Source: Saccoglossus kowalevskii
Taxonomy: Eukaryota > Hemichordata > Enteropneusta > Harrimaniidae
Assembly (NCBI RefSeq): GCF_000003605.2
Contig: NW_003143797.1
Span: 328,610 to 350,442 of the forward strand
Length of the DNA: 21,833 nucleotides
Direction of reading: 5' to 3'
The notes below the pieces were generated by a model that saw only the letters and a program-made list of their open reading frames with translations, was not told where the DNA came from and did not search any database. A program made the position numbers and the translations under genes. The stretch's first letter is position 1. Each line of letters begins with the position of its first letter. This document shows positions 8,721 through 21,090 of the stretch, piece by piece.

Positions 8721-9010
8721 GTATCGCAAATGCAGACGATTCTACGAACACAAATGGAGTTTGACGAATATATACGGAGGTTTTACAAATACAACTACAT
8801 GTATACATTTCTACCAAAATGCGCCCTCTATGCCCACTTATCACATTTTTTACAAATATAGATGATCCATGAATACAAATGCAGATTTTACGAATATAAA
8901 TGCATGGTTTACAAATACAAATGGAGGCTTTAATGATTATAAATAGAGATTTAACGAATATAAATGGGAGTTATATGAATATAAATATGTTACTTATAAA
9001 TATGAATGTT
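8721..9010. repeat. Decayed A-rich tandem repeat, unit about 21-23 bp
   Basis: Units resembling ACGAATATAAATGGAGATTT recur about ten times with many substitutions (for example at 8743, 8766, 8885, 8899, 8920, 8955, 8977). A non-repeat interruption lies at about 8800-8850. It is old and strongly diverged, in contrast to the fresh array in intron 3. Confidence 0.75.
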
Positions 9011-13304: not shown

Positions 13305-13999
13305 ATGGATTCGCCCAAATACGGCTCCGCTAGCGCCGCTGATCGACCTGACGATGAGCCCGATGAAAAAGAACCATTAATCAGAAACCAGTCACCGACC
13401 TTCCCGAACAAATGCCTCTGCACGAAAAAAGGTTGTTACATAACAGCATGCTTGGCGTGGACGCTCTTTGTCTGTGTACTGCTGTTAATTACCTTCGTAG
13501 TTCTGCTAACATTTTTCTTGGGAAGGCGCCACTGCGACGAAACTTACGGGTTGCCCCCTGAACCCGAACCAAAAACAACTCCTTCGTTCGATGGCAGACT
13601 TCCAGAGACAGTCAAACCTGTCGCCTATCATCTGAACATCACTCCATATCTAGACGAAGAAGATGGTGACAAACGTTTTACGTTCGACGGCGACGTTACC
13701 ATTGATATAGATTGTATCCACCCATCGAATTCCATAACTTTGCATTTTTTGGATTTACGCATTGACACCGATTCCGTTCAAGTCACCAATAAAAGCAACG
13801 ATGAAGCAGTTGCTGTAGCCGGGACAATGTTTATTTCCGAATATGATTTCCTTATAATAAATTTGGATCGTTTTATAATGACTGAACACCAGTATCAGAT
13901 TTATATTAGATTTGCAGGCAGTCTAAACACAAGTAAAGACCCTGATGGTTCCTGGTTTGGTTTTTATTCCAGTTCCTATGAAACTAATGGGGAAACAAG
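13305..13999 (+). CDS. Exon 1: cytosolic tail, membrane anchor and N-terminal domain of the M1 aminopeptidase
   Basis: Encodes residues 1-231 and two bases of codon 232. The start is supported by an in-frame TAA at 13296-13298 and a strong Kozak context (G at -3 and G at +4). The tail is polar and acidic, with an EKEPLI dileucine motif at residues 21-26 and cysteines at 37, 39 and 44 just before the membrane. Residues about 46-73 form one long hydrophobic segment with no cleavage site, so a type II signal anchor is expected, with the catalytic part outside the cell or in a vesicle lumen. A Pro/Thr/Glu-rich stalk (83-95) leads into the M1 start [15 protein letters not shown]-glycosylation sequons are N111, N162 and N208. 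The exon ends ACAAG|GTAAAT (phase 2); the reading frame hits a stop immediately after the donor, in agreement with an intron. Confidence 0.96.
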
Positions 14000-16900
14000 G
14001 TAAATATTATGAAACATTAAACGCCACATTTAAAGTGCGGTAGTCGTCGCGCCACGCATGTGCAAGATATACGAGTCTCATATAATCAAAGATGGCTACT
14101 TTTACTGTTGCGCAGATCAACGAGTACGAACTGAGACGTTTCCAAGCTTTAATTAGGTAATTTTCAGGTGATTGGAAGATATCGAAGGAGTCACCGGCAG
14201 TAATCAGTGCAAGTCGCATCCAGGTCAAACCTCATACTTGTAAATTCTATTTGAAGAGCGCATTGTGGGAAAATCAATGTTTATCAATACAAATGTCACA
14301 CATGACCACCATGCTTTAAATATACCGTAGATACAAGCAATAAATCATTTCCTTGTGTACCATGATATTTTGCACTGAACCATAACATATATACAAATGA
14401 GCAAAATTTATTTATATATACATGTACCTGACTGCATTTTATTGGTATATATTCATTGAAATCATGAAATTAATCGTATATTAATTTCACAAATCAAGCT
14501 GAAATGAGAAGTTTCTATTGGCTGTTTGAATAACATCAGGATGATTTCAAATTGTGTTGTGCACTGTGCTCCTTGACTGGCTGGTTTTATTTATAAAGAT
14601 GAAGGAATGCCTTTGTTGCACCAATTGAAATGGGAAAATATATTAAGGAGACTATATTCAAAATTAATAATTGAGGTTAAATGTAGGGCTTGGGTGTTAT
14701 TAGACAAATTGTACATCCAGAACTAGAAACAAGATTGTTTTCTTGAAGAGAGATTGTGGCTTCGTTTTGAGAGAAGGAGACAAGCGGTGTAGTATTATGT
14801 AAAACTGTCAGTGGAATAAAGTAATGGATTTAAATACTTAAAACATATTTCTGATGATAACACCTTGGTAGATATAGTATTGTAGTTGTTGCCAGACTTT
14901 AATAATGACAGCATTCACTAAATATGAAGCACAATCGATCTTGACTATTGACCGACTCTTGACTATTACAGCAGGCACAAATAGGATTCGTACGGGTAAC
15001 TTACACCTTCCCTGGAAGTCCTTAGCAATTTTCCAATAACCCCATCAACATCCCTCAGGCGATTGAAATGACTGAAAATAAGATTCTGATTCGCCAGGAT
15101 AATTGATAACTTCCCTTGTATAGTCACAAGAATGTTGTATAATGAAAACAGACAACAACTTTGCCATAGTACATACATAGACAAAAATTAAAATTGATTA
15201 GTTCAAAATCAAGTTGCGCCATGGTAACCAAGTGAGACTATCACAAAATGTAGCACATACCAGTACTAAGTATTACCACTATCAAATGACACAATAGTAC
15301 AGTGGTCCCTCGCTAAGTCATGTGTATAAATACTTATCAGCAAAGTAAGCAAAATTAAAACCCAGTGGATAACTAATGCATTTTCTGTCGTCACAGTTTA
15401 AGCCCAGTTATCAGATATGCAATTGCTAATATTAATAAAGATAATAATAATAATTATTATAATATAAATCTTTATTGCATCTTTAGAAAATGTTAACTTC
15501 TATTTCTAACAAAGAAAGAATTGGGAAAATAAGTGTTAACATAAATAGACAAAAGATGAATAAATGAAGCTGTATTAATCGTTATTTTGTTTTTGGAATG
15601 CAGCAAAATTATAGTGGACTACAGTGTTTAATTTTTGAGTGTTTTTTATTATTAAATATATTAATTTGTCAGTATCATTTAGTAAGATTGATCGTATTCT
15701 TATTTGTCACCTATTGATGGCCATAATAAATAGGAAAATACAACGTCGACAGGTGATGCGTTAACATATGTTGTTGAAGTTGTGGTATTCTAGGCATATC
15801 ATAAGAAAATGTACTGAAATCTTATCTCCCTTTTGAATGTATAGATACCTTGCATCAACAAAGCTGGAACCGAGCGGTGCACGGCGTATGTTTCCTTGTT
15901 TTGATGAACCATCAATGAAAGCTACCTTTGATATAGTGGTAAACCATCGTCTGGGAAGAACGGCACTGTCTAATATGCCTAATATAAGGAATGAAATGGG
16001 CACAGAGTGGAACACTGCGTACTTTGATACATCTGTAGTGATGTCAACGTATCTAGTGGCTGTAGTTGTGTCTGATTTTGTTAATATGAAAACTATAACA
16101 GCCAATGGAGTGCAGGTAATTAACATGTATTATAAAAATGTCTAATGAGATATTTAAACAACATTGTTTTCTTTTGTTTATGTTGTATGTTCCGCAGTCA
16201 GTGCATTGTGTGTGCGTATGTGCACAGTAATTGCATGGTTGCCAAGAACCAGTGGTTCACACCTAAAAATGACGATGTGAACGTTATTGAAGAAAGTAAA
16301 TTGTGGGTGAAGGAAATCCCCTGTCTCGTGCCTGTTCCGTTGATGTCTGCGGGTACCGAAAAAACAGTGTGTTCTATGATGCTAGGGTTTGACAAATCTC
16401 CACTCAAATATTATTTAGATTAAATAATATATATGTTTAAATATATATATATATTGATTACTTTGTGATGCTCTCACCCTAGCAATATCCTCAGGCAGGT
16501 TGCTTAATTTTAAGAAATGACGCAACATTTCATTCACGTCAATTCCTCACTATGTCATGTATAAAATCAAAACTATTTGCAGGTGAGTAAACAACGTATC
16601 AAAACTTGAATGAAAGTGTAACATTTTTTGAACTGTTAATTAGCGGAAGACTTATTTTTGAAGTGACACGATAGGTTGGGATCTTTACTATGTTATTTTA
16701 TTAAAAAAATGTAGCAATTAAAGCACGCCAAAGGCTACCCTTGTCAATGCATTCAAGTATTCTTTGTCTCAAATTCAATTGTCTTTTACAGTATAGTATA
16801 TTAAATTAAACATGTTTTTTTTTTCAGTTTCGTGTTTGGTCTACAGCAGATTATTCACATGGTTTGACATTTTCACTTGAGTTTGGTAACCAATCATTGA

Positions 16901-19900
16901 CAGACTTTGAACAACTTTGGGGGATTCCGTATTCGCTTCCAAAGATGGGTATGTAAATGAACTTGGTTTTGTAATGAACATATGTACAATGCATTATGGG
17001 AGAATGGTAAATGTTTGTTTGAAAATTTTGCGATGAGGCTTTTCCAGACCATGTGATTGAGCCAACATTTTGAAAATGATGAAATTCTTTCACCATGGGA
17101 ACCAATTATGCACAAAAAAAGCGTAAATGTTTGTTTAGTCCAGTGTATTCATCCAGTGATTGCTATAATTGTTATCCAGAAGATAAATATCAATGTGGTG
17201 AATAGAATCAAAACCGAAACCCGAATGAATTCTACTACATTCTTCCCACAGTAACAAAATGTAAATACACAACAAAGTATAGGCACTTATAAACTTGAAC
17301 GACAATAAACCAGAGAAAAGTTAAATTTTGGCTATAGAGCTGGCCTCACAGAAACACATAAGAGCTTACGAAATGCTTTCTCTATTCAATTGTGAATAAT
17401 TCAATACCTGTAACATTGAAGAAATAAATTGCTATACATGTAATAAAATGTGATTTAATATAGTTACTTGTTTAAGCAATAAAAAAACCCATCCCCCAGA
17501 CTGAAGACAGGTATACCACAAGATACTGCACAATTGTGCAATATCAAGTGGTATACCCAACTTCAGCAGGGGGTTATTGCTATTATATTATACCAGGATA
17601 TTGACAATTCGATAAAACTAGTAAAAAGGGAGTTTACTTGCATCTACTATAAAATCATGATTATGGCCCTTGTACATGAATATTTATTAAAAAATACACA
17701 TATGCAACACAGTTCAAATTAAATACAAACTTCTTTATTTCATGTGAAATACAAAAGGTAAAATTGTGATGCATAAACACAAAAATTAGCATAACAAAGA
17801 TGACCTTTTACTGATTATGACATCAATGCCATTTGAGTACATGGTCATCTACACTTTAGATCAATAAAACAACTGATTTTCCATGTTTTTGACTGTAATT
17901 GGCCCATTGAAAGTACAATTGTAAAATAAACCAGATGTCGTGACTCATCATACTACTTGTAACTGAGGATATTTGACGTTCAGGGGTATTTGGCTAAACC
18001 AAAGTTTGATTTTGAGACATAGCAGGATGCTGTTATGTATCATGTACGGTGACTGGCATGACGATCTCAGACCCAACATCTGACCTGAATACATCTTTGG
18101 TATAATGTCGCAGTAATACAGTGGTTGGTTTACACTCGCGACAAATCTGCAGCTTTTGTGATTACCTTCATCATCTCCCCTAGTTTATTTTCCCCAGTGG
18201 ACAATTACAATACCATATATCATTGTAGAATTCTGTATTATCCAGTCGTCTTTGAAACAGATTACAATCACCCTGGTGCAATTTTGTCAGGTAGAATTCA
18301 AACGCGGCTGAGGGCACCGGTTGTTATCTGTGGCATATGTTTTTGCCTGTGCCTTGTAATTTTTTCCAATATTTTTCCAAAATTCTACCACTATATTTCC
18401 CTAAAAATCAAATACTACCGGTAATATGTATTTCTGCATTAAACCTGCTATCAATTCATGTTCCAGGGCCACTTTGTTTAGCAATAGTGTGAATTATCAG
18501 CCAATATACTCTTAATTGCATGTTTGGACCAATCAAATTGATGGATTAACACCATCAATATACTGGTATATTAATAGTAGTTCACAATCTTCATATGAAT
18601 TTAATTGTACTGGTTATATATGCATAAATATAAAGAAACATAATTGGAATGAACATATGAACAATCAAGCTTTATGACCTAGAGTGGTATAATATATATA
18701 GTCTGTGGTATAATACAGTAGTATAATATAGTCTGTGGTATAATACAGTAGTATAATATAGTCTGTGGTATAATACAGTAGTATAATATAGTCTGTGGTA
18801 TAATACAGTAGTATAATATAGTCTGTGGTATAAAACAGTGGTATAATATAGTCTGTGGTATAATACAGTGGTATAATATAGTCTGTGGTATAATAAGTGG
18901 TATAATATAGTCTGGTATAATATAGTCTGTGGTATAATACAGTGGTATAATATAGTCTGTGGTATAATACAGTGATATAATATAGTCTGTGGTATAATAC
19001 AGTGGTATAATATAGTCTGTGGTATAATACAGTGGTATAATATAGTCTGTGGTATAATAAGTGGTATAATATAGTCTGTGGTATAATACAGTGGTATAAT
19101 ATAGTCTGTGGTATAATACAGTGGTATAATATAGTCTGTGGTATAATACAGTGGTATAATATAGTCTGTGGTATAATATAGTCTGTGGTATAATAAGTGG
19201 TATAATATAGTCTGTGGTATAATACAGTGGTATAATACAGTGGTATAATATAGTCTGTGGTATAATACAGTGGTATAATATAGTCTGTGGTATAATACAG
19301 TGGTATAATATAGTCTGTGGTATAATACAGTGGTATAATATAGTCTGTGGTATAATACAGTGGTATAATATAGTCTGTGGTATAATACAGTGGTATAATA
19401 TAGTCTGTGGTATAATACAGTGGTATAATATAGTCTGTGGTATAATACAGTGGTATAATATAGTCTGTGGTATAATACAGTGGTATAATATAGTCTGTGG
19501 TATAATGCAGTGATATAATATAGTCTGTGGTATAATACAGTGGTATAATATAGTCTGTGGTATAATACAGTGATATAATATAGTCTGTGGTATAATACAG
19601 TGATATAATATAGTCTGTGGTATAATACAGTGGTATAATATAGTCTGTGGTATAATACAGTGGTGTAATATATTCTGTTGTATAATCCATTTTTATAATA
19701 TAGTCTGTGGTATAATAAGTGGTATAATATAGTCTGTGGTATAATATAGTGGTATAATATAGTCTGTGGTATAATACAGTGGTGTAATATATTCTGTTGT
19801 ATAATCCATTTTTATAATATAGTATGTGGTATAATAAGTGGTATAATATAGTCTGTGGTATAATACAGTGGTGTAATATATTCTGTTGTATAATCCATTT

Positions 19901-21090
19901 TTATAATATAGTCTGTGGTATAATATAGTGGTATAATATAGTCTGTGGTATAATACAGTGGTGTAATATATTCTGTTGTATAATCCATTTTTATAATATA
20001 GTCTGTGGTATAATACAGTGGTATAATATAGTCTGTGGTATAATACAGTGGTATAATATAGTCTGTGGTATAAAACAGTGGTATAATATAGTCTGTGTTA
20101 TAATACAGTGGTGTAATACAGTGGTGTAATATAGTCTGTGGTATAATACAGTGGTATAATATAGTCTGTGGTATAAAACAGTGGTGTAATATAGTCTGTG
20201 GTATAATACAGTGGTATAATATAGTCTGTGGTATAATATAGTATGTGGTAACAGTGCTATAGTAGTCTGTGTTATAATACAGTGGTATATATTACAGCTT
20301 CTAACCTCAGTAATTAAAGAAGTGCATGTTGTTTTTGATTCATAATAGACATGGTAGCTTTGCCGGTATTTGATGCTGGTGCCATGGAAAACTGGGGATT
20401 GATTACGTACAAAGACTATAGGATGTTGTACGATGACACGATTCATTCACCGTCACATTTACAAAGTGTTGCATTAGTAATTGCTCATGAATTGGTACAC
20501 ATGGTAAGCTAACACTCTCACATATAAATCCAGTAATCATATATTTACACAACATAGATGATAAACGGTTGCATCATTGTGCAATAGACTTTATTAATAT
20601 CTTGTGGTCTTCTTACAATCTGTTACCAAACCACAGTCACAGTATGCCGTTATTTGGCCTGATATCTGTAATATCATATGTGCTTTAATTGAATGCAATG
20701 CGATATCTGAATTACCGGTACGTTATAAGTAGGAAATCACAAGCTGTACATTCATTTGACGGTATTCTAATACAATTTGATACCCTATGGAATCCAAATC
20801 ATTCTGGTAATATTTCAGTGGTTTGGAAACTTTGTAACACTGGGCTGGTGGGACGATACTTGGCTTAATGAAGGCTTTGCCACTTACTATGAGATTGTGG
20901 GCATGGATAAGATATTTCCGGAATGGCAAATGGTGAGCTGAAAATTCAAATTATTATTTCAAATACCTTATTTCAGTGGTTTGGTAATTTTGTAACACTG
21001 GCTTGGTGGGATGATACTTGGCTGAACGAAGGTTTTGCAAGATTTTATGAAATTGTTGGTGTTAATAATATATTACCAGAATGGAAGATG
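13305..21090 (+). CDS. Aminopeptidase N-like M1 zinc metallopeptidase gene, 3' end outside window
   Basis: Gene-level entry. The exons are 13305-13999, 15845-16115, 16828-16948, 20349-20503 and then either 20819-20932 or 20977-21090. Joined with one copy of the last exon they give 452 residues with no frame break; intron phases are 2, 0, 1, 0. Order of parts: cytosolic tail (1-45), one membrane anchor (about 46-73), N-terminal beta domain (from LPETVKP at 99), PCFDEP at 249-254, GAMEN at 373-377, HELVH at 409-413, and NEGFA with the third zinc ligand E432. The HEXXH-X18-E spacing is exact for the M1 (gluzincin) family, which removes N-terminal residues from peptides. Family members are typically 900-1000 residues, so roughly half is here; the catalytic Tyr and the C-terminal helical domain should lie downstream. 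Paralogues such as aminopeptidase A, TRH-degrading enzyme or ERAP types cannot be separated from this half alone. Confidence 0.95.
14000..15844 (+). other. Intron 1 (1845 bp, phase 2)
   Basis: Donor GTAAAT at 14000, acceptor TGTATAG ending at 15844. AT-rich, with no supported gene. It contains a perfect 10-bp-arm hairpin (TGAAATTAAT at 14465-14474 and its complement at 14480-14489), a 9-bp-arm AT-rich inverted repeat (AATAAAGAT at 15434-15442 against 15468-15476), a repeated CTTGACTATT near 14940-14970, and a piece at about 15339-15385 that recurs at 21320-21350. Confidence 0.9.
15845..16115 (+). CDS. Exon 2: M1 N-terminal domain with the PCFDEP motif and an S1-site lysine
   Basis: Encodes the end of codon 232 (AG|A, Arg) through Q322. 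The start TAG|A at 15844/15845 joins exon 1 in phase 2 and gives [17 protein letters not shown], a direct match to the conserved M1 block that precedes PCFDEP (residues 249-254). TALSNMP and [13 protein letters not shown] are the usual next landmarks. The exon ends GTGCAG|GTAATT in phase 0. Odd point: in most M1 enzymes the block reads A-T/S-T-Q with Gln at the S1 specificity position, while here it is AST-K, Lys238, codon 15861-15863. The two-residues-later acidic position (E240) is kept. In aminopeptidase A the aligned residue is Asp, which binds calcium. Assignment is certain at family level. Confidence 0.95.
16116..16827 (+). other. Intron 2 (712 bp, phase 0)
   Basis: Donor GTAATT at 16116; acceptor is a T-rich tract followed by CAG ending at 16827. 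An unexplained open frame lies inside (16145-16423, discussed in the findings). An AT microsatellite-like stretch follows at about 16424-16455. The rest holds nothing recognisable. Confidence 0.88.
16828..16948 (+). CDS. Exon 3: M1 linker between N-terminal and catalytic domains
   Basis: Encodes residues 323-362 and the first base of codon 363. Acceptor: a long T tract then CAG|TTTCGT. The product begins [13 protein letters not shown] and ends [11 protein letters not shown], matching the M1 segment V-R-V-W-S/A-R-P ... Y-F-x-I-P-Y-P-L-P-K-x-D that leads into the catalytic domain. N343 is in an NQS sequon. Donor choice: GTATGT at 16949 leaves phase 1, and only this site joins the AC at the start of exon 4 to restore the conserved Asp of K-M-D. 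The usual PYPLPK is PYSLPK here, a mild change. The short 121-bp size is normal for the family. Confidence 0.93.
17475..17581. repeat. Long imperfect foldback (inverted repeat), about 107 bp
   Basis: The two halves are near-complements. Reading outward from the central palindrome TGCACAATTGTGCA (17526-17539), the matched blocks are GATA/TATC, GGTATACCAC/GTGGTATACC, CTGAAG/CTTCAG, CCCCC/GGGGG and AGCAATAA/TTATTGCT. Small 1-3 base internal loops separate them, and there is a bulge of about 10 bases in the left arm between AGCAATAA and CCCCC. About 38 base pairs can form with almost no terminal loop. This is most like a foldback MITE; a transcribed hairpin is also possible as it lies in the sense strand of an intron. 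No clear target-site duplication is seen. Confidence 0.75.
18684..20293. repeat. 30-bp minisatellite array, about 53 copies
   Basis: Tandem repeats run for 1.6 kb with period 30. Each unit is itself a diverged dimer of a roughly 15-bp motif GTGGTATAATAYAG. The left end carries a sub-type with ACAGTAGTATAAT (about 18710-18830), the centre is highly homogeneous ACAGTGGTATAAT, and the right part (19660-20010) shows a higher-order pattern with GTGTAATATATTCTGTTG. Shortened units (26-29 bp) occur throughout. Because 30 is a multiple of 3 and one minus-strand frame lacks stops, the array gives long meaningless open frames on the minus strand. It ends about 55 bp before exon 4. Confidence 0.97.
20349..20503 (+). 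CDS. Exon 4: M1 catalytic core with GAMEN and HEXXH
   Basis: Encodes residues 363-414. It begins [26 protein letters not shown] (20378-20392) is the exopeptidase motif that holds the substrate N-terminus, with E376 the expected amine-binding Glu. It ends [17 protein letters not shown] (20486-20500) supplies zinc ligands H409 and H413 and the general base E410. The exon starts at ATAG|AC (phase 1) and ends CACATG|GTAAGC (phase 0). Odd points: the residue after HEXXH is Met414, where nearly all M1 enzymes have Gln, and the block before GAMEN reads VFDA rather than the usual DFNA. All direct catalytic residues are intact, so activity is expected. Confidence 0.96.
20504..20818 (+). other. Intron 4 (315 bp, phase 0)
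   Basis: Donor GTAAGC at 20504; acceptor TATTTCAG ending at 20818. No gene and no further copy of the duplicated exon is visible. If the downstream exon copy is chosen instead, the intron extends to 20976. Confidence 0.88.
20819..20932 (+). CDS. Exon 5a: first copy of the duplicated exon with the third zinc ligand
   Basis: Thirty-eight codons, phase 0 at both ends, residues 415-452. Acceptor TATTTCAG|TGG, donor ATG|GTGAGC. It begins [20 protein letters not shown], the canonical M1 segment; E432 (codon 20870-20872) is the third zinc ligand, 18 residues after the HEXXH His. It ends [18 protein letters not shown]. Compared with its neighbour 5b it has G423, T436, Y437, M443, D444, K445, F447 and Q451. 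NEGFATYYE is the more ordinary M1 version. It joins exon 4 directly to give HELVH-M-WFGN. Retaining the following 44-bp intron would add Val-Ser and then a TGA stop. Confidence 0.94.
20933..20976 (+). other. 44-bp spacer intron between duplicated exons
   Basis: Bounded by GTGAGC and TTATTTCAG, so both signals look functional. At 44 bp it is far shorter than every other intron in the gene (315 bp or more) and leaves little room between donor and branch point. It is not a multiple of three and gives an in-frame TGA three codons in, so retention truncates the protein. Confidence 0.9.
20977..21090 (+). CDS. Exon 5b: second copy of the duplicated exon with the third zinc ligand
   Basis: Thirty-eight codons, phase 0 at both ends, the same length as 5a. 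Acceptor TTATTTCAG|TGG, donor ATG|GTGAGT (a better consensus than 5a). It keeps WFGN, WW, WLNEGFA and zinc ligand Glu (codon 21028-21030). It differs from 5a at 8 of 38 residues (G423A, T436R, Y437F, M443V, D444N, K445N, F447L, Q451K) and at 24 of 114 bases; 11 of the 19 changed codons are silent, the mark of purifying selection rather than decay. No stop or frameshift is present. Used in place of 5a it gives an intact active site. Using both in series would stay in frame but insert a second WFGN...NEGFA segment, which should not fold as an M1 active site. Confidence 0.91.

What the first reader, a model, noticed from the sequence alone, without database searches (positions are those of the whole stretch)
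20819..21090. Tandem duplicated, probably mutually exclusive exons that swap the third-zinc-ligand segment of an M1 aminopeptidase
Two adjacent exons of identical length (114 bp), identical phase (0/0) and intact splice signals encode the same WFGN...NEGFA...PEW segment. They are 30/38 identical in protein and 90/114 in DNA, and most of the changed codons are silent. Each carries the zinc-ligand Glu, so either one completes the HEXXH-X18-E site begun in exon 4, while neither or both should not. Isoform choice would therefore rebuild part of the catalytic pocket. Swapping an active-site exon of an M1 enzyme by splicing is not something I know to be described.
Basis: partly seen in the sequence, partly recalled or inferred. 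Interest (0 to 1): 0.88.

Follow-up and report, generated by a model that had tools for sequence, protein, structure and literature searches.

The report
Switchable active-site exon in acorn-worm aminopeptidase
An acorn-worm gene for a protein-trimming enzyme carries two side-by-side versions of the exon that builds part of its zinc-holding active site, and the sequence suggests that only one version can be used at a time, which would let one gene make two enzyme forms; nobody has yet shown that both are used.

Summary
The organism is the acorn worm Saccoglossus kowalevskii; its public protein model equals the spliced window with 5B (452 of 452 residues). I found no record with 5A. Silent sites are saturated while the protein is conserved; a model with 5A neutral fits 11 log units worse. 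The 44-nt spacer is about half the shortest of 46 introns measured in M1 genes here (81 nt) and under the published ~50-nt donor-to-branch-point limit, so joining 5A to 5B should be blocked. Best reading: mutually exclusive exons, 5B default, 5A regulated. New: one of the eight residue changes, Thr/Arg, lies four residues after the zinc-ligand Glu, where ERAP2 Lys397 and E. coli PepN Val324 line the S1' pocket. So the choice would tune P1' preference rather than catalysis. It is a new member of a known kind (like KHK, CYP4F3); four literature searches gave no M1 case. Use of 5A in RNA is unproven.

The parts
13305..13999 (+). exon 1 of the aminopeptidase-N-like gene (start Met, cytosolic tail, membrane helix, start of domain I)
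   Evidence: same residues in P0001
15845..16115 (+). exon 2 (..FPCFDEP..)
16828..16948 (+). exon 3 ([13 protein letters not shown])
20349..20503 (+). exon 4: GAMEN exopeptidase motif and HELVH zinc motif
20819..20932 (+). exon 5A: WFGN..NEGFAT..PEWQM; carries the third zinc ligand; weaker splice sites; Thr at zinc-Glu+4
20933..20976 (+). 44-nt spacer (GTGAGC..TTTCAG) between the two copies; read through from 5A it meets TGA at its third codon
20977..21090 (+). exon 5B: WFGN..NEGFAR..PEWKM; carries the third zinc ligand; stronger splice sites; Arg at zinc-Glu+4; the copy used in the public model P0001
21091..21833 (+). start of the intron after 5B; contig ends here, exon 6 (FDQFYQQ..) lies off the contig

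Best explanation
A pair of mutually exclusive exons made by an old tandem duplication of exon 5 in a Saccoglossus kowalevskii membrane aminopeptidase-N-like gene. Exon 4 is spliced either to 5B (default, stronger sites) or to 5A (weaker, hence regulated), and either is spliced to exon 6. Joining 5A to 5B is prevented because the 44-nt spacer cannot hold a branch point far enough from the 5A donor; skipping both would keep the frame but delete the third zinc ligand. The exon encodes a strand plus the zinc-ligand helix. Exchanging it leaves the zinc ligand in place but swaps Thr for Arg on the next turn of that helix, in the S1' pocket wall, so the two forms should differ in preference for the second residue (P1') of substrate peptides. 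Shown: duplication, intact signals, open frame, constraint on the copies as a pair, use of 5B in the public model, position of the Thr/Arg site by alignment. Inferred: use of 5A in RNA, mutual exclusion, change of specificity.
For: Exact structure. Both copies match Peptidase_M1 on their own and are closer to each other (79%) than to the exon-5 segment of any of 14 paralogue loci compared (at most 68%; 14 of the 24 other places). 26 exon-5-type matches at 25 places in the genome; this is the only place with two (counted by hand). Silent sites saturated (NG86 dN 0.10, dS 2.6); log-likelihood -213.9 with both copies constrained, -225.1 with 5A neutral, -231.7 with both neutral; a neutral end stretch on 5A costs 1.7-2.0 units at 0.1 and 2.8-3.4 at 0.15 substitutions/site. 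The 8 residue differences lie in columns variable among 119 homologues (P about 0.001). Spacer 44 nt against a shortest of 81 nt among 46 M1-gene introns; published steric limit about 50 nt donor to branch point. Donor and acceptor scores of both copies lie within the range of 23 introns, 5B higher on both (8.45 v 6.85; 6.81 v 4.87). Segment position 22 aligns to position 397 of ERAP2 chains; ERAP2 Lys397, ERAP1 Lys380 and PepN Val324 are S1' residues. Modelled helix 429-446 carries Glu432 and Arg436.
Against: The only public protein found for this gene uses 5B, with one member in its cluster; two further searches with 5A found no 5A-bearing protein. No RNA could be examined. The selection test rests on 38 codons, saturated silent sites and equal branch lengths; the fitted values sit at extremes. 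At segment position 29, 5A has Met (2 of 119 homologues) where 5B has the common Val (71 of 119). The intron sample is one gene family. No second hemichordate with the pair was found: the Ptychodera and Glandiceps proteins listed each show one segment, though their genomes could not be read. No RNA pairing of spacer and flanks beyond shuffles.
Confidence: 0.66

Rival explanations
1. 5A is a retired exon: it was used in the past, or is now used at trace level only, and the gene makes the 5B form alone.
For: Public model uses 5B only and no 5A record was found; 5A has the weaker donor and a weak acceptor (third lowest when placed among 23).
Against: No stop, frameshift or lost splice signal; conservation allows only a short neutral stretch; its differences from 5B are at tolerant columns.
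Confidence: 0.22
2. Both copies are included together, giving an enzyme with a repeated helix and a second NEGFA.
For: Frame is kept (114 is divisible by 3).
Against: Needs removal of a 44-nt intron, about half the shortest of 46 measured; would insert 38 residues next to the zinc helix; public model has one copy.
Confidence: 0.03
3. 5A is a switch-off exon: when its acceptor is used without its donor, the spacer is read through and meets TGA at the third codon, giving a truncated protein or decay of the message.
For: Spacer translates V-S-stop in the frame of 5A; weak 5A sites.
Against: Such a role does not need the 38-residue protein sequence to be conserved, yet it is; donor GTGAGC is intact.
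Confidence: 0.06
4. Assembly artefact: two alleles or two paralogous exons placed side by side.
For: Window lies at a contig end; draft assembly of 4830 contigs.
Against: 21% DNA divergence with saturated silent sites is far beyond allelic difference; 5A and 5B are each other's nearest relatives among the M1 exons compared; the spacer is a coherent donor-to-acceptor stretch. A check for a second contig with the same locus did not complete (see Tried and rejected).
Confidence: 0.03

Closest known systems
Ketohexokinase exons 3A/3C (KHK-A/KHK-C)
   Same: Alternative use of one of two exons of an enzyme, tissue-dependent (passages of PMC6464065)
   Different: Sugar kinase, not a metallopeptidase; RNA evidence exists there and not here. 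That the two exons are tandem duplicates near the active site is recalled, not from a call.
CYP4F3 exons 3 and 4 (CYP4F3A/B)
   Same: Mutually exclusive exons of one enzyme gene; a cited title states that splicing switches substrate specificity (passages and a reference entry of PMC9658179)
   Different: Cytochrome P450; no metal ligand of a peptidase is involved (recalled)
OGDH exons 4a/4b and Tpm1 intron 2 (exclusion by donor-to-branch-point distance)
   Same: Mechanism proposed here: branch point closer than about 50 nt to the upstream donor (passages of PMC7969005)
   Different: There branch points were mapped and lie far from the 3' splice site; here no branch point is mapped and the whole spacer is only 44 nt
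Aminopeptidase N, ERAP1/ERAP2 (M1 family)
   Same: Sequence and fold; the S1' wall position under discussion is Lys in ERAP1/ERAP2
   Different: I found no report of a duplicated alternative exon at this place; a paper on human mutually exclusive exons has no word 'aminopeptidase' in its main text

Membership tests
M1 aminopeptidase (aminopeptidase N type) | Peptidase_M1 domain with GAMEN and HEXXH-X18-E | tested here: met
   both isoforms
M1 aminopeptidase (aminopeptidase N type) | Whole fold of aminopeptidase N, N-terminal membrane anchor | tested here: met
   5B form P0001: model mean pLDDT 90.8, helix 48-74 near the N end (alignment of 35 proteins); best PDB matches are aminopeptidase N ectodomains, E 9e-69. 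Membrane orientation is inferred. The 5A form was not modelled.
M1 aminopeptidase (aminopeptidase N type) | Aminopeptidase activity of either form | not testable with these tools
   no assay
Mutually exclusive tandem-duplicated exons | Adjacent homologous exons, same length or phase, covering the same protein region | tested here: met
Mutually exclusive tandem-duplicated exons | Both copies under coding constraint | tested here: met
   (38 codons, saturated silent sites, equal branch lengths assumed)
Mutually exclusive tandem-duplicated exons | A feature that prevents joint inclusion (short spacer, U2/U12 mismatch, frameshift, RNA pairing) | tested here: inconclusive
   Short spacer met: 44 nt. 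Frameshift not met: 114 nt keeps frame. RNA pairing of spacer with flanks not above shuffles (81 and 190 of 200 shuffles as good). U2/U12 mismatch not tested; introns are GT-AG.
Mutually exclusive tandem-duplicated exons | Both copies seen in transcripts, never together | not testable with these tools
   no RNA data; public model shows 5B only

The most novel reading that the evidence does not exclude
One M1 aminopeptidase gene toggles its S1' pocket by splicing: 5A gives the Thr/Ser type of most homologues listed, 5B the Arg type that, among 119 homologues, occurs in 13 of 38 hemichordate but 1 of 81 other sequences. The hemichordate radiation of M1 enzymes would then vary the same pocket residue both by gene duplication and, here, by exon choice within one gene.
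Probability: 0.4. Interest if true: 0.62.

Novelty: new member of a known kind. Interest (0 to 1): 0.46.

Why it matters
If both forms are made, one gene supplies two peptidases that share everything but a 38-residue stretch with the zinc-ligand helix: a natural swap experiment at an M1 active site. It would add a metallopeptidase to the enzymes whose pocket is chosen by splicing, and give a clean test of what the residue after NEGFA does for P1' preference in the family that includes aminopeptidase N, ERAP1 and ERAP2. The exon boundary falls between the two zinc helices of the model, so the swap is structurally tidy.

Tried and rejected
Plasmid collection search with the window DNA: no match, as expected for an animal. 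Competing RNA structures (dock and selector) between spacer and flanks: no signal; the intron4-downstream duplex (4 of 100 shuffles as good) is a long diffuse pairing and was not taken as evidence. Homologues with two NEGFA-type motifs: 9 of the 120 proteins; seven of these (P0006, P0017, P0021, P0033, P0037, P0039, P0040) show two HEXXH far apart, like fused neighbouring genes (judged from positions only); P0019 (sea urchin) and P0074 (beetle) hold near-identical or identical repeats and look like assembly or annotation artefacts (sequences seen). Papers, searches by listing: (17 papers; 3; 0; 0) for M1 or peptidase cases of exclusive or duplicated exons showed none by title and start of abstract; (10 papers, Saccoglossus with mutually exclusive splicing) showed none about peptidases; only the open-licence library was searched. 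(10 of 34 listed, none opened) was meant to give an intron-length figure for this animal and did not. (passages) had nothing on peptidases. The 38-residue tree joins 5A and 5B with support 0.53 only, too weak to date the duplication; the full-length tree (38 hemichordate proteins, P0076 left out, and two outgroups) does not settle which Ptychodera gene is the orthologue (0.476). In the splice-site matrix 20 of 24 aligned paralogue introns were used, plus 3 of the window; the 4 that did not resolve to GT-AG with 97% agreement were dropped. In one search I had counted P0076 (Ptychodera) as non-hemichordate; one search mends this (13 of 38 and 1 of 81 instead of 13 of 37 and 1 of 82). The 5A form was not modelled.

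Full report
WHAT IS THERE. The window is the last 21,833 bases of a 350,442-base contig (C3462) of a 572-Mb, 4,830-contig animal genome. The organism is Saccoglossus kowalevskii, an acorn worm: the spliced window protein with 5B agrees with a public 'aminopeptidase N-like [Saccoglossus kowalevskii]' model (P0001, 973 aa) at 452 of 452 residues, and with 5A at 444 of 452; two other S. kowalevskii models lie on contigs of exactly the lengths of two contigs here (88,378 and 21,838).

GENE. Exons 13305-13999, 15845-16115, 16828-16948 and 20349-20503 join in frame and give a membrane-anchored aminopeptidase up to ..HELVHM (orientation in the membrane is inferred). Then come 5A (20819-20932), a 44-nt spacer, and 5B (20977-21090). 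Both copies are 114 nt, phase 0/0, with AG and GT in place. Either completes HEXXH-X18-E. 90/114 bases and 30/38 residues agree; of 19 changed codons 11 are silent. Each copy alone is a significant Peptidase_M1 match.

WHICH COPY IS KNOWN TO BE USED. P0001 reads HELVHM|..[29 protein letters not shown], i.e. exon 4 - 5B - exon 6. Its cluster holds one sequence. A search with the hypothetical 5A form over residues 405-462 returned 12 proteins: P0001 at 86% over that part, the other 11 at 67% or less. A search with a 137-residue exon 4-5A-6 piece returned 276 (120 listed), the best-scoring at 48% and none listed above 64% identity. None of the 251 proteins fetched holds any of four distinctive 5A words. 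So 5A appears unannotated.

IS 5A ALIVE? Silent sites between the copies are saturated (NG86 dN 0.10, dS 2.6). In a codon model with equal branches, log-likelihood is -213.9 if both copies share a low omega, -225.1 if 5A has been neutral, -231.7 if both have. Letting only the last part of the 5A branch be neutral, 0.1 substitutions/site costs 1.7-2.0 units, 0.15 costs 2.8-3.4 and 0.2 costs 3.9-5.0 (kappa 4, 2 and 1). Limits: 38 codons, saturation, parameters at extreme values. The eight residue differences fall in columns that vary among 119 homologues (mean entropy 2.40 against 1.34 for all 38 columns; a random choice of eight reaches that in 0.1%; the 119 are P0002-P0120, i.e. the 120 listed less P0001, out of 6,952 matches). 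At one of them, position 29, 5A has the rare residue (Met, 2 of 119). Both sets of splice sites score inside the range of 23 introns of S. kowalevskii M1 genes: donors 6.85 (5A) and 8.45 (5B) in 2.9-10.5; acceptors 4.87 (5A) and 6.81 (5B) in 4.7-13.1 (a small matrix scored on its own training set, 5A and 5B not in it; 4 of 24 aligned paralogue introns dropped as unresolved). 5A is thus weaker on both sides but real-looking.

WHY EXCLUSIVE. The spacer is 44 nt. In 46 distinct introns of the M1 genes of this genome (27 from protein alignments, shortest 91; 21 from exon 4-5 match ends, shortest 81; 2 shared) the shortest is 81 nt. Published work takes about 50 nt between donor and branch point as the steric limit and uses it as a criterion for exclusive exons (57 of 629 human clusters; passages of PMC5740500; passages of PMC7969005). 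Any branch point within the spacer is below it. Frame gives no protection, since 114 is divisible by three; skipping both would delete the zinc ligand in frame. Reading through the spacer from 5A meets TGA at its third codon. No dock-and-selector pairing of the spacer was seen. Only one gene family was sampled for intron length, and some animals splice introns this short (recalled), so this step is an inference.

WHAT THE SWAP WOULD CHANGE. In a structure model of the 5B form (mean pLDDT 90.8; alignment of 35 proteins) a helix at 397-412 holds most of HELVH (409-413) and ends two residues before the exon boundary (414/415); the exon covers strand 420-422 and helix 429-446, which carries the zinc ligand Glu432. 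The best solved matches are aminopeptidase N ectodomains. Differences: G/A at segment position 9, T/R 22, Y/F 23, M/V 29, D/N 30, K/N 31, F/L 33, Q/K 37. None is a zinc ligand. Position 22 is the zinc Glu + 4, one helical turn on. It aligns without gaps to position 397 of ERAP2 chains (segment 1-37 to 376-412, 5A as query; chain position is taken as residue number). A paper on M1 inhibitors (section 3.3 of PMC6222927 read in full, other passages seen) lists Val324 in the S1' subsite of E. coli PepN and says that the Lys380 of ERAP1 and Lys397 of ERAP2 extend into that cavity; Val324 is zinc Glu + 4 if the listed His297-Glu298 begin HEXXH (recalled as so). So 5A puts Thr and 5B Arg in the S1' wall. 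Among the 119 homologues this column holds T 67, S 33, R 14, E 3, D 1, K 1; R is found in 13 of 38 hemichordate sequences and 1 of 81 others. The sample was ranked by likeness to the query, so this contrast may be inflated. I conclude that the exchange most likely tunes P1' preference; this is inference from position only.

HOW OLD, HOW WIDESPREAD. 5A and 5B agree at 30/38; the best other segment among the 119 agrees with either at 27/38. Of 14 paralogue loci of this genome compared, the best agrees at 68%. Of 25 places with an exon-5-type Peptidase_M1 match, one (this) has two and 24 have one (table, counted by hand; a lower bound because only best candidates are scored). The Ptychodera and Glandiceps proteins listed show one segment each; their genomes were not readable here, so a hidden second copy there is possible. 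The trees do not date the duplication.

RELATION TO KNOWN THINGS. Tandem-duplicated mutually exclusive exons are a well-described kind (listing and starts of abstracts). Enzyme precedents: KHK and CYP4F3, for which a cited title says splicing switches substrate specificity. For M1 enzymes I found none in the searches. I therefore file it as a new member of a known kind, with an unusual address: the exon that carries a metal ligand.

VERDICT. Observation confirmed; interpretation partly supported. Two coding exons kept by selection, in a geometry that should forbid joint use, make exclusive splicing the likeliest explanation (0.66), with a retired 5A the main rival (0.22).

Noticed in passing
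window 18696-20242 (overlapping array to 20289): A minisatellite of about 52 copies of a 30-bp unit lies in intron 3 and ends 59-106 bases before exon 4; its length may vary between animals and could affect splicing into exon 4.
   Followed up: no
window 21833 (contig end): The contig stops 743 bases after exon 5B, so the gene's 3' half is missing here, while the public model lies on a contig of 376,128 bases; the assembly versions seem to differ.
   Followed up: partly
genome G000, contigs C3160 and C3168: M1 aminopeptidases are numerous in this genome, with 25 exon-5-type places, 10 of them on two contigs; Arg after NEGFA recurs in hemichordate copies.
   Followed up: partly
protein P0019 (Strongylocentrotus purpuratus, 691 aa): The model holds the exon 4 + exon 5 region twice, nearly identical; probably an assembly artefact, but a tandem two-exon duplication is not excluded.
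   Followed up: no
window 8743-9007: Six diverged copies of a 54-nt A+T-rich repeat, start-to-start spacing 105, 21, 21, 43 and 21.
   Followed up: no
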